This document shows, one piece after another, positions 24,656-26,793 of a stretch of 36,989 bases of DNA. The notes below the pieces were generated by a model. It was not told where the DNA came from. It did no database searches and saw nothing but the letters and a program-made list of their open reading frames with translations. Positions within the stretch are counted from its first letter, which is position 1, and every line of letters begins with the position of its first letter. The translations under genes and the position numbers were made by a program. The stretch comes from a virus. Location: positions 1 through 36,989 of IMG/VR virus record IMGVR_UViG_3300009075_000011; one strand, given 5' to 3'.

Positions 24656-26077
24656 TCAGATAGCGTACCGATCCACCATCACCGTGTCAAGCATGATGGC
24701 TTCTGGTGTGAAGCGGTCAAAGTCAGCCTTCAGTACCCCTTGCATTACTGCTGGCGAGAAGCCCGAAATCAAAGCCACCCCTTGATCGTTGAAACGTGCA
24801 GGCACGTTGTCATACGAGTTCAGGTTCCAGAACACGATCTTTGGAAGCTCATAACCAGCAGCCTCGAATCGTGCGCGGGTAGCCTCAAGTGCCGATCCAC
24901 CAAACTTCGCGCAGGCATCGAATTGCATGTCCGACAGAATCAACAGCATGGTCGGCATGTCCTTTGCAGGCACCGCAAACGTCTTTGCGTGCGAAAGAAT
25001 CTTGTCCATCGCCTTCATCAGGTCGGTGTTCATCGCCCAGCTGGATTGAGCCATTTGGTCGATCTTGGACAGAACATTCCCCTTCAGATGCAGCAACTCA
25101 GGCGAACCCGAGAAGGTCAAGAAGGTGTCCTTGAACGCGCCACGGTTCTTGTCAGCAACGTACAGACCCAAAGATACCGCCACTTCAAGGCACGATACCT
25201 TCGTAGGCGACTTCCCCGCACCAATTGGGCAAGTCATGGAACCCGAAACGTCAACCATCGCCAGAACGTTGGTACCGTCCATGTAGTCAGGCAACGCTTC
25301 CCATTGCGACAGAATCACTTGTCCTTCAGCTTCGGACGGCGGGCGACCGTAAACGCCCATCAACCCTTGCAGAACTTGGTACGGGAAAACAGCACCTGCA
25401 TTCACCTTGTCCGTACCCTTTGCCAAACGTGCAGCATAGGCTTCGTATGCTTCCTTCGCGTTGCGATAGAAAGCACCCTTGTAGCGGGTCGATGCCAACG
25501 AAGGCAGCTTACCGAATTCGATCTTGTCCCATGCCTTCGCGCACATGAGAGTTTCAACCACGTTGGTCAGACCAACGAGAGTCTTGCGATATTGCTTTGG
25601 CGACATGCCCATGTACTCACGCAGGGCGATTGCGTCCTTACCCTTACGAGGCATCCACTTCGCTGCCAGGCCGTCACCAGCCAGAAGCGCCATGTGGATG
25701 AACGCGAACGCTTCTTCGCGAAGCTTTTCGTCATAACGAAACACCAGCAGGTCATCCCAACGACCAACTTCTGGAGTCTTGTACATCAGCGCCCTTGCGG
25801 CAGCTGGGTCGCGCACTTCCAGATATTGGAGAATGTCGCGGTAGATTTGACGTTCGCCAGCACCACCACGAACGTCACGGGCCCATTGCGCGAGGCGCAA
25901 TGCGACTTCGCGGTTTTCTTGCAAAGCCTTTGCGAACAAAGGCGTCACATCGCGACCGCGGGAAGCGCCGATCTGGTAGAACAGGTCTACAGTGGCCTTC
26001 AACGAACCAACGAATGCCTCCATGCCGTTGGTGGTAGTGGTACGTTCTGCACCGACATTGGTGACAAAAGTGTTCAT
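24656..26077 (-). CDS. Ro60-like TROVE/vWA RNA-binding protein (DUF2828-related)
   Basis: 473 aa from the ATG at 26077, chosen because AAGGAG lies six bases before it; an in-frame ATG at 26092 lacks an RBS. Residues ~15-250 form an all-helical region with ARDVRGGAGER and PEVGRWDDLLVF, typical of TROVE-like HEAT-repeat rings. Residues ~265-473 are a von Willebrand A domain with the metal-site residues DVSGS (D276, S278, S280) plus NTD and LSDMQFD. Ro60/Rsr proteins bind misfolded RNAs and Y RNAs and help exonucleases or RNA repair. Here a sigma70-type promoter and a ~300-nt structured leader precede the gene. Phage members are usually annotated only as TROVE or vWA proteins. RNA binding is inferred from the family. 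Confidence 0.85.
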   Translation of the reverse strand: MNTFVTNVGAERTTTTNGMEAFVGSLKATVDLFYQIGASRGRDVTPLFAKALQENREVALRLAQWARDVRGGAGERQIYRDILQYLEVRDPAAARALMYKTPEVGRWDDLLVFRYDEKLREEAFAFIHMALLAGDGLAAKWMPRKGKDAIALREYMGMSPKQYRKTLVGLTNVVETLMCAKAWDKIEFGKLPSLASTRYKGAFYRNAKEAYEAYAARLAKGTDKVNAGAVFPYQVLQGLMGVYGRPPSEAEGQVILSQWEALPDYMDGTNVLAMVDVSGSMTCPIGAGKSPTKVSCLEVAVSLGLYVADKNRGAFKDTFLTFSGSPELLHLKGNVLSKIDQMAQSSWAMNTDLMKAMDKILSHAKTFAVPAKDMPTMLLILSDMQFDACAKFGGSALEATRARFEAAGYELPKIVFWNLNSYDNVPARFNDQGVALISGFSPAVMQGVLKADFDRFTPEAIMLDTVMVDRYAI

Positions 26078-26098
26078 CATCATCTCCTTCATGTTAAC

Positions 26099-26164
26099 GG
26101 AATCGCGCCTTTCGGCTATGGTTTCTTGTTAAGAGAAAGTTTGGTTGTTTGCTGAAACGATTCC
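26099..26164 (-). ncRNA. Structured leader element 3 upstream of the TROVE/vWA gene
   Basis: The 66-nt segment begins GGAATCG, continues with TTTCAGCAA, and ends CGATTCC, a perfect 7-bp closing stem. A small inner hairpin (GCC-GAAA-GGC type) precedes the 3' arm. It ends 21 bases before the chosen ATG. It shares layout with elements 1 and 2 although the stems differ in sequence, which is evidence for conserved secondary structure. Confidence 0.65.
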
Positions 26165-26178
26165 ACTTGTTTGTAACA

Positions 26179-26227
26179 GGCTAGCACGTTTAACGTCCGC
26201 CGACCTTTTGGGTTGCTGAATCTAGCC
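26179..26227 (-). ncRNA. Structured leader element 2 upstream of the TROVE/vWA gene
   Basis: 49 nt beginning GGCTAG, then A and TTCAGCAA, closing with CTAGCC. Inside are an ACGTT/AACGT hairpin and a short GTC/GAC pairing. Same architecture as elements 1 and 3, shortest of the three. Confidence 0.65.
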
Positions 26228-26249
26228 TAAAACACTACAGAACAAAAAC

Positions 26250-26366
26250 GGGATAGGGGGTCTGTCTTGATAGACGGGTCCAGTACCCGTGGTCCGTTGC
26301 TCAAAATGGGAGGTTGTACGTCCCCGCGGCAACGTCATGGCTTTGTTAGATTGCTGAAACTATCCC
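26250..26366 (-). ncRNA. Structured leader element 1 upstream of the TROVE/vWA gene
   Basis: 117 nt beginning GGGATAG, then TTTCAGCAA, closing with CTATCCC. Inside are an ACGGGT/ACCCGT hairpin with a 5-base loop and a GTCT/AGAC hairpin. It starts about 14 nt into the transcript predicted from the upstream promoter. It could be a Y-RNA-like partner of the TROVE protein, an autoregulatory leader or a riboswitch; no known class is recognised. Confidence 0.65.
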
Positions 26367-26387
26367 TTTGTCTCACTCAAGATTCCT

Positions 26388-26415
26388 ATTATAGCACCTT
26401 TTGGAATCTTGTCAA
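26388..26415 (-). promoter_or_regulatory. sigma70-type promoter for the TROVE/vWA transcript
   Basis: Consensus TTGACA (26410-26415), 16-bp spacer, and consensus TATAAT (26388-26393). Transcription would start near 26381, leaving a ~300-nt leader. Such a perfect host-type promoter suggests early expression. Confidence 0.9.
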
Positions 26416-26424
26416 TCGGTAAAT

Positions 26425-26793
26425 CTAACGCAGTCCTTCTTGTCTTGCCTTTCGCCTTAACACCTGGCGAGAAGGAATGTCTGCTGGCCGCACCAGTTGA
26501 GTCGGGTGACTCGGATTCGGCACAAATGCTGGGGAGACGAATCCTCGCTTATTGCGTCGTGCGATTTCTCGCTTACCTTGATGGGCAGCCCGTTGCTCAT
26601 ATTGCTTAGGCTTATACCACGCCCGCGCCGGAAGGTTCAATGCGCCCAGATCAAACAGGATCTTCTCCGCCATGTTGCCGATGATGGGCTTCACTACCTT
26701 CTTGCTCATTTCCTCGACGGCTGCATTGTTGCCGTCAATGATTTCTTCGGTAGTCACAACTTCACTCGCCTCTACTTTATTTTCATTATCCAT
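26425..26793 (-). CDS. Unknown 122-aa basic-tailed protein
   Basis: The ATG at 26793 is favoured because GAAGGA lies about ten bases upstream; an ATG at 26802 sits too close to it. The start lies inside the end of the methyltransferase gene. The N-terminal ~45 residues are acidic and the C-terminal ~60 are Arg/Lys-rich (KREIARRNKRGFVSP; RQVLRRKARQEGLR). No family is recognised; nucleic-acid binding would fit the charge pattern. Confidence 0.7.
   Translation of the reverse strand: MDNENKVEASEVVTTEEIIDGNNAAVEEMSKKVVKPIIGNMAEKILFDLGALNLPARAWYKPKQYEQRAAHQGKREIARRNKRGFVSPAFVPNPSHPTQLVRPADIPSRQVLRRKARQEGLR

What the first reader, a model, noticed from the sequence alone, without database searches (positions are those of the whole stretch)
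26099..26366. Three structured repeats in the leader of a Ro60-like gene: candidate Y-RNA-like system
Each element begins with a 6-7 base strand starting GG, followed at once by (T/A)TTCAGCAA, and ends with the exact complement of the first strand: GGGATAG..CTATCCC, GGCTAG..CTAGCC, GGAATCG..CGATTCC. Stem sequences differ while pairing is kept, which is compensatory variation inside one leader. The downstream product is a TROVE/vWA protein, a family that binds Y RNAs through helices formed by their 5' and 3' ends. The elements could be ligands, decoys or autoregulatory sites. The GTTTCAGCAA core faintly recalls a tRNA D-arm.
Basis: partly seen in the sequence, partly recalled or inferred. Interest (0 to 1): 0.9.

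Follow-up and report, generated by a model that had tools for sequence, protein, structure and literature searches.

The report
Ro60 clamp RNAs carrying tRNA mimics
Just before a Ro60-like gene this phage carries three RNA elements that belong to a large family found in many phages and some bacteria, in which the same small clamp, closed by ever-changing but always pairing ends, holds interchangeable inserts that often imitate parts of transfer RNA.

Summary
On the minus strand, behind the window's only perfect sigma-70 promoter, three elements (26366-26250, 26228-26178, 26164-26099) each have a 7-bp closing stem, a 3-nt spacer, CAGCAA and a payload. The gene product, although Pfam calls it DUF2828/DUF7788, folds like Ro60/Rsr. 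Of 74 related viral loci with at least 300 nt upstream, 62 carry such an element within 1 kb upstream, against 1 of 74 on the opposite strand and 0 of 74 downstream. When the two halves were picked without using pairing, 100 of 119 pairs matched at all four variable positions (8.8 expected from re-dealt partners). Contigs found by the element alone usually carry the gene (36 of 50; all 7 over 100 kb). Payloads are often anticodon-arm mimics or circularly permuted tRNAs, the layout of bacterial YrlA RNA, and some ordinary tRNA genes hold the clamp as an inserted hairpin. In the window only element A has an anticodon-arm-like hairpin. I read this as a Y-RNA-like ligand system of a Ro60 branch; its CAGCAA clamp is absent from Rfam's YrlA consensus. 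Binding, discrete RNAs and function are inferred, not shown. tRNA decoys or adaptors are my preferred role; autoregulation and tRNA splicing are rivals.

The parts
26388..26415 (-). sigma-70 type promoter TTGACA-N16-TATAAT with extended -10 (TG)
   Evidence: 12 of 12 consensus positions, only such site in the window, 0.02 expected by shuffling
26250..26366 (-). element C: 7-bp closing stem GGGATAG/CTATCCC, TTT spacer, CAGCAA, 94-nt payload with own hairpins (not recognisably tRNA-like)
26178..26228 (-). element B: closing stem AGGCTAG/CTAGCCT, ATT spacer, CAGCAA, 28-nt payload
26099..26164 (-). element A: closing stem GGAATCG/CGATTCC, TTT spacer, CAGCAA, payload with a 5-bp/7-nt anticodon-arm-like hairpin (TTTCT CTTAACA AGAAA) and a GCC-GAAA-GGC hairpin
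   Evidence: fold z -3.07
26084..26090 (-). probable Shine-Dalgarno sequence GAAGGAG; likely true start is the ATG at 26077 (M-N-T-F, the family consensus start)
   Evidence: sequence and family consensus; inference
24656..26092 (-). Ro60-like protein (TROVE-type helical domain + vWA fold with MIDAS), 478-aa ORF; Pfam DUF7788/DUF2828, PHROG 850
   Evidence: MIDAS residues D281, S283, S285, T356, D388 invariant in 65 sequences; fold

Best explanation
The three elements are Y-RNA-like ligands of the Ro60-like protein encoded behind them. Each is a module with two parts: a clamp (7-bp stem made by its own ends, 3-nt spacer, CAGCAA, A-rich 3' side) that is the presumed Ro60 handle, and an interchangeable payload. 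They are transcribed with the protein from a consensus promoter. The clamp keeps pairing but not sequence, and arms usually differ between elements of one genome, which would let several elements on one transcript fold without cross-pairing. Payloads often imitate an anticodon arm or a whole tRNA (permuted as in bacterial YrlA, or open). I think the RNP presents tRNA mimics during infection, as decoys or adaptors for tRNA-handling enzymes such as anticodon nucleases. Shown here: anatomy, covariation, gene linkage, tRNA mimicry in relatives, Ro60 fold. Inferred: transcription, binding, processing into separate RNAs, decoy or adaptor role. The confidence is for a Y-RNA-like Ro60 ligand; for the decoy or adaptor role specifically it is about 0.35.
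For: Covariation without selection on pairing: 100 of 119 unique pairs match at 4/4 variable positions, 26 distinct 4-mers; re-dealt partners mean 8.8, max 19 in 1000; three of the four variable positions show all four Watson-Crick pairs. Linkage: 62 of 74 viral loci have a strict element within 1 kb upstream, 0 of 74 downstream, 1 of 74 on the opposite strand. Element-only search: 36 of 50 contigs carry the gene, 25 of 28 of at least 20 kb, 7 of 7 of at least 100 kb. 15 of 16 isolate phages with the gene have at least one clamp; T4, without the gene, has none at its five candidate sites or in its tRNA cluster. Bacterial genome records: 151 unique elements in 59 of 80 loci, 156 hits on the gene strand against 6. 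Payloads: 35 of 70 short ones hold a 7-nt loop with U33 and a purine 37 (shuffles mean 2.35, max 5); 18 of 53 medium ones give a junction-spanning tRNA, 0 of 53 in each of five shuffles. The YrlA model's best hit falls on the permuted element in 6 of 12 records searched, up to 41 bits (alignment). Protein: top three Foldseek PDB hits are TROVE/Rsr/phage Ro60, and the top ten VIA-align rows are all Ro60/Rsr, Z 17.8 to 11.5.
Against: No binding, expression or phenotype data for this phage. Window elements B and C have no recognisable tRNA part. 12 of 74 viral loci lack a strict element upstream, 7 lack any by the relaxed rule. 14 of 50 element-bearing contigs showed no gene, three of them over 20 kb, all possibly incomplete. 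No element was found in phage ME3 at the two sites and the gene region looked at. No YrlA hit reaches Rfam's cut-off of 69 bits, in the window there is none, and the YrlA consensus has no CAGCAA clamp. The Pfam scan gives no TROVE hit. In Listeria phage CKA15 the one ncRNA region whose coordinates the text gives lies about 0.7 kb upstream of the elements, not on them.
Confidence: 0.78

Rival explanations
1. Cis-acting autoregulatory leader: Ro60-like protein binds the clamps in its own mRNA and controls translation or stability, with no separate RNAs.
For: In the window and in most viral loci the elements sit in the 5' leader of the gene, the last one only 8 nt above the Shine-Dalgarno sequence.
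Against: In FelixO1, Faith1 and the Staphylococcus phage elements lie downstream of the gene; in KVP40, Aeh1, S13, DLP_6 and OC several lie in or near distant tRNA clusters or elsewhere; some are inside tRNA genes. Payload mimicry of tRNA is not needed for a leader. The role may coexist with the main one.
Confidence: 0.1
2. Intron-like element: the clamp marks tRNA pieces for excision and ligation, so permuted and clamp-bearing tRNA genes yield ordinary tRNAs, with the Ro60-like protein as chaperone of splicing or repair.
For: In clamp-bearing tRNA-like RNAs the first two bases of the anticodon stem often lie on the other side of the clamp and pair with 42-43: 20 of 52 cases, against 2.1 + 3.3 expected from re-dealt partners, for example GG..GGA CTTATAA TCCCC. 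S13 element 3 encodes a CCA end inside its linker (reading of the sequence).
Against: The same pairing would form around an unspliced clamp arm. 32 of 52 cases lack it. Mini elements hold only an anticodon arm and would give no tRNA. None of window elements A-C is a tRNA. No splicing enzyme was looked for here.
Confidence: 0.08
3. A mobile or proliferating repeat (REP-like) that merely accumulated near tRNA genes and this gene.
For: Multiple copies per genome, modular, found in intergenic spaces.
Against: Copies in one locus differ in arm sequence in 42 of 46 multi-copy loci, strand is fixed to the gene, and the gene co-occurs.
Confidence: 0.03
4. Chance or artefact.
For: None beyond the small size of each element.
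Confidence: 0.01

Closest known systems
Bacterial Y RNA YrlA (Rfam RF02553), with Rsr
   Same: Ends pair into a basal stem; some family payloads have T arm, closed acceptor and D arm in the permuted order of YrlA; encoded with a Ro60 homologue.
   Different: Basal stem has a constant CAGCAA motif not seen in the RF02553 consensus; arms covary freely; several elements per genome; anticodon arms and mini elements occur; bit scores below the cut-off (41.3 at best against 69). Window elements A-C do not match it at all.
Y RNAs predicted in mycobacteriophages (Chen et al. 2014) and suggested in Listeria phage CKA15 (PMC12282133)
   Same: Phage-borne, near a Ro-like gene. Mycobacteriophage Faith1 and the Listeria phages carry the clamp found here.
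   Different: Chen 2014 is not held here, and I know it only through passages of PMC12282133 and PMC7790460, so I cannot say whether its consensus includes this clamp. The CKA15 paper, as far as I read it (passages, section 8), leaves the identity of its RNAs open.
Ro60/Rsr proteins (PDB 9kop, 9l5y from Thermus phage phiLo, 2nvo, 1yvp)
   Same: Overall fold, MIDAS-bearing vWA domain.
   Different: 13-17% identity in the ten Ro60/Rsr structural alignments; separate Pfam families DUF2828/DUF7788.
Vertebrate Y RNA
   Same: Presumed Ro60 binding through a stem formed by both ends.
   Different: No Rfam Y RNA match in the window; unrelated sequence.

Membership tests
Y RNA in the broad sense (Ro60 ligand) | encoded with a Ro60 homologue | tested here: met
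   62 of 74 viral loci within 1 kb; protein fold
Y RNA in the broad sense (Ro60 ligand) | stem formed by the RNA's own 5' and 3' parts, kept by compensatory change | tested here: met
   window folds
Y RNA in the broad sense (Ro60 ligand) | binds Ro60 through that stem | not testable with these tools
   needs a binding assay
Y RNA in the broad sense (Ro60 ligand) | exists as a discrete small RNA | not testable with these tools
   promoter present; CKA15 transcript data do not locate an RNA on the elements in the passages read
YrlA, Rfam RF02553 | score at or above the curated 69 bits | tested here: not met
   window: no match; relatives: 0 of 12 records over the cut-off, best 41.3 bits
YrlA, Rfam RF02553 | permuted tRNA-like domain (T arm, closed acceptor, D arm) | tested here: not met
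   not seen in window elements A-C; present in some relatives
Ro60/TROVE protein | fold: TROVE helical domain plus vWA domain | tested here: met
   Foldseek E 5.8e-9 to 9kop; VIA-align Z 17.8 over 403 residues, rmsd 4.7; ten Ro60/Rsr entries above the first other vWA fold
Ro60/TROVE protein | Pfam TROVE profile match | tested here: not met
   only DUF7788 and DUF2828 at E <= 1e-3; profile against PDB reaches TROVE chains at E 0.0039
Ro60/TROVE protein | vWA MIDAS residues | tested here: met
   D281, S283, S285, T356, D388 invariant in 65 of 65
tRNA gene | cloverleaf found by ARAGORN or Rfam | tested here: not met
   none of the nine window tRNAs overlaps the elements

The most novel reading that the evidence does not exclude
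The CAGCAA clamp is a portable Ro60 tag grafted onto tRNAs and tRNA pieces. The same RNA topology occurs as open permuted genes, as closed hairpins inside tRNA genes, and as bare anticodon arms. Phages and some bacteria use it to build a Ro60-held library of tRNA mimics, and in its boldest form to make split or permuted tRNAs that are rejoined across the clamp: a Ro60-guided tRNA splicing or repair system.
Probability: 0.12. Interest if true: 0.95.

Novelty: new variant of a known kind. Interest (0 to 1): 0.8.

Why it matters
Phage Ro60-like genes are common (682 of 50,697 phage records match this protein) but in what I could read their RNA partners are little more than a suggestion. A simple consensus (7-nt arm, 3 nt, CAGCAA, payload, complementary arm) makes them findable in well-studied phages such as FelixO1, KVP40, Listeria P100-type phages and mycobacteriophages, so Ro60 binding and tRNA-decoy ideas can be tested directly. 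It also bears on why Y RNAs mimic tRNAs: here the mimicry is modular and includes anticodon arms.

Tried and rejected
Rfam scan of the leader, gathering and lax: only tRNAs elsewhere and chance snoRNA hits. Terminator scan: nothing between the elements and the gene. A D-arm origin of the core: rejected, the core is the constant clamp, not part of a tRNA-like stretch. ARAGORN on linear and plain doubled elements: only 2 and 8 of 159, so payload ends were trimmed systematically with shuffled controls (one search failed on a parsing error). The anticodon-arm count inside (28 of 34) mostly picked T arms and is not used; one search replaced it. Attempt to place the CKA15 abundant RNAs on the elements: region 26,236-26,727 maps to L081 2495-2986, away from the elements. 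T4 rnaC and rnaD carry no clamp. Two tRNA-rich phages wanted as further negative controls were not held under the accessions asked for, so T4 is the only gene-free control phage. phmmer of the protein against PDB gave one doubtful fimbrial hit, discarded.

Rows dropped before counts: L097 from the element counts; 13 of 172 strict elements (arm not starting AG/GG/TG or 3' flank not T/G) before the payload counts; 42 of 161 repeated pairs; six of 80 loci with under 300 nt upstream. Some of the 74 loci are near-identical contigs, and L001 has the window's own leader, so these counts are not all independent; some RNAs are near copies or counted in both the open and closed form.

Full report
What is there. 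The leader of a Ro60-like gene (minus strand, ORF 26092-24656; likely true start 26077) holds three elements, C 26366-26250, B 26228-26178 and A 26164-26099. A 12/12 sigma-70 promoter lies at 26415-26388, the only one in the window with 0.02 expected. Each element has a 7-bp closing stem, a 3-nt spacer, CAGCAA, then a payload. Folding closes each at the named arms. Three strict elements in 328 nt were never approached in 20,000 shuffles: 23 had one, none two. Payload A holds an anticodon-arm-like hairpin, though with a C, not a purine, at position 37; B and C show nothing tRNA-like to me.

The protein. Pfam calls it DUF7788 and DUF2828, with no TROVE hit; PHROG 850 'RNA-binding protein'. The AlphaFold2 model (pLDDT 77.9, pTM 0.73; 50-row alignment A1) matches TROVE 9kop (Foldseek E 5.8e-9), D. 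radiodurans Rsr 2nvo (3e-7) and Ro60 of Thermus phage phiLo 9l5y (7.6e-7). In VIA-align the ten best rows are all Ro60/Rsr entries, Z 17.8 to 11.5, above other vWA proteins at 10.5 and below. MIDAS residues are invariant in 65 sequences.

Relatives. Of 80 IMG/VR loci, 74 have at least 300 nt upstream; 62 carry a strict element within 1 kb upstream on the gene strand, 67 if one G-U pair is allowed, 7 none. Controls: 1 of 74 on the opposite strand, 0 of 74 downstream. Some loci are near copies of each other, and L001 shares the window's leader exactly. Across 97 loci the 3-nt spacer register gives 258 hits (up to one G-U) on the gene strand against 46 on the other; shuffled cores average 25.

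Covariation. To avoid circularity I took 5' halves AGR-N4-N3-CAGCAA and, as 3' half, the first N4-Y-CTGTT within reach, without looking at pairing. There were 196 such 5' halves on the gene strand and 15 on the other; 161 of the 196 had a 3' half, 119 after removing repeats. Of these 119, 100 pair at all four variable positions with 26 distinct sequences; re-dealt partners give 8.8 on average, 19 at most in 1000. Positions 4, 6 and 7 each show all four Watson-Crick pairs; position 5 is nearly always T-A. In 42 of 46 loci with several elements all arms differ.

Named phages. Clamps were found in 15 of 16 isolates that carry the gene: Listeria cka16, FelixO1, KVP40, Faith1, S13, Synechococcus BUCT-ZZ01, Campylobacter CPX, Staphylococcus S-CoN_Ph9, Enterococcus EFGrNG, phiM12, Aeh1, LAh_9 (seven elements), DLP_6, OC, Erwinia SNUABM_12; not in Acinetobacter ME3 at the two sites and gene region looked at. 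The 16 are chosen from 682 matching records, not a random sample. Several elements sit downstream of the gene or in tRNA clusters. T4 lacks the gene and shows no clamp at its five candidate sites or in its tRNA cluster. Starting from elements alone, two viral scans gave 53 loci; 36 of 50 contigs searched carry DUF7788, 25 of 28 of at least 20 kb and 7 of 7 of at least 100 kb. In bacterial genome records 59 of 80 loci hold 151 unique elements, 156 hits on the gene strand against 6 on the other, 144 of 151 counted as upstream by a simple coordinate rule. Some of these records look phage-derived (ROOL RNA and tRNA arrays).

Payloads. Of 159 filtered elements, 70 have payloads up to 52 nt; 35 of these hold a hairpin with a 7-nt loop, U33 and a purine 37 (shuffles mean 2.35, max 5), most often with anticodons UGU (11), GUU (6) and UUU (5). 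Of 53 payloads of 60-140 nt, 18 give a junction-spanning tRNA when doubled and trimmed, 0 of 53 in each of five shuffled sets; at least two of the 18 are ordinary, unpermuted tRNA bodies (L008_4391, L013_1442). Rfam's YrlA model has its best hit on the permuted element in 6 of the 12 records searched, up to 41.3 bits, but 0 of 12 reach the 69-bit cut-off; the lax search also rings in 13 of 14 control genomes, so weak hits mean little. The alignment shows T arm, closed acceptor and D arm in YrlA order, and a YrlA basal stem without CAGCAA.

Clamp inside tRNAs. A closed form (arm, short loop, arm, spacer, C-N-GCA) occurs 64 times, against 3-10 for six control cores; leaving it out gives a tRNA in 40 of 64, against 1 of 64 with a shuffled 3' flank. 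In tRNA-like cases, bases 27-28 on the far side of the clamp pair with 42-43 in 9 of 26 closed and 11 of 26 open cases (re-dealt: 2.1 and 3.3). So the anticodon stem often forms across the clamp. This fits an extra arm as well as an intron.

How it may work. Best reading: Y-RNA-like modules whose clamp is held by the Ro60-like protein and whose payload faces tRNA-handling enzymes. For YrlA, PMC7790460 (passages) suggests, as one possibility, competitive inhibition of an anticodon nuclease; phages meet such nucleases (established knowledge, e.g. T4 and PrrC), so decoys are my preferred role, at about 0.35. Autoregulation and splicing remain open. Nothing here shows binding.

Literature. PMC12282133 (passages and section 8) reports very abundant non-coding transcripts upstream of an Rsr-like gene in Listeria phage CKA15 and suggests Y RNAs. 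The region given (26,236-26,727) is not on the clamps, which map to 25,290-25,552. PMC8394870 (passages) describes YrlA. PMC7824862 (passages) notes TROVE proteins in some jumbo phages. Searches for phage Y RNA, permuted tRNA in phages, DUF2828 and related terms listed no paper that, by title or abstract, describes this clamp; the library lacks most subscription papers, including Chen et al. 2014, which reportedly predicted Y RNAs in mycobacteriophages, so part of this family may already be in print.

Noticed in passing
26378-26386 and 26403-26411: A 9-bp perfect inverted repeat (CAAGATTCC/GGAATCTTG) flanks the -10 box of the leader promoter, operator-like.
   Followed up: no
L085 4874-5116, L091 6926-7314, L092 379-498, L086 4720-4836, L236, L246, L247, L260: tRNA genes of about 113-122 nt hold the clamp as an inserted hairpin; annotated simply as tRNAs or 'tRNA-OTHER' where annotated.
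   Followed up: partly
PMC12282133, protein CKA15_055: The Ro60-like protein of Listeria phage CKA15 was detected in purified virions (20 peptides, 57.1% coverage); homologues in two other phages are annotated 'structural protein'.
   Followed up: no
L226 3041-3615, L242 2653-3227: ROOL RNA lies in a tRNA array upstream of a Ro60-like gene in two records filed as Clostridiales and Mogibacterium.
   Followed up: no
L015 104-302, L022 442-614: Permuted tRNA-like payloads whose acceptor stem looks greatly extended and carries a further structured insert (reading of the sequence).
   Followed up: no
L018 4630-4839, L027 3937-4138, L012 4612-4829 and others: A recurrent payload class of about 200 nt with GGAGGA.. 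and GAAAGACAG.AAGAT-like motifs; identity unknown.
   Followed up: no
L081 2495-2986 (CKA15 26,236-26,727): The most abundant CKA15 non-coding transcript region has no CAGCAA clamp by my scan and remains unexplained.
   Followed up: partly
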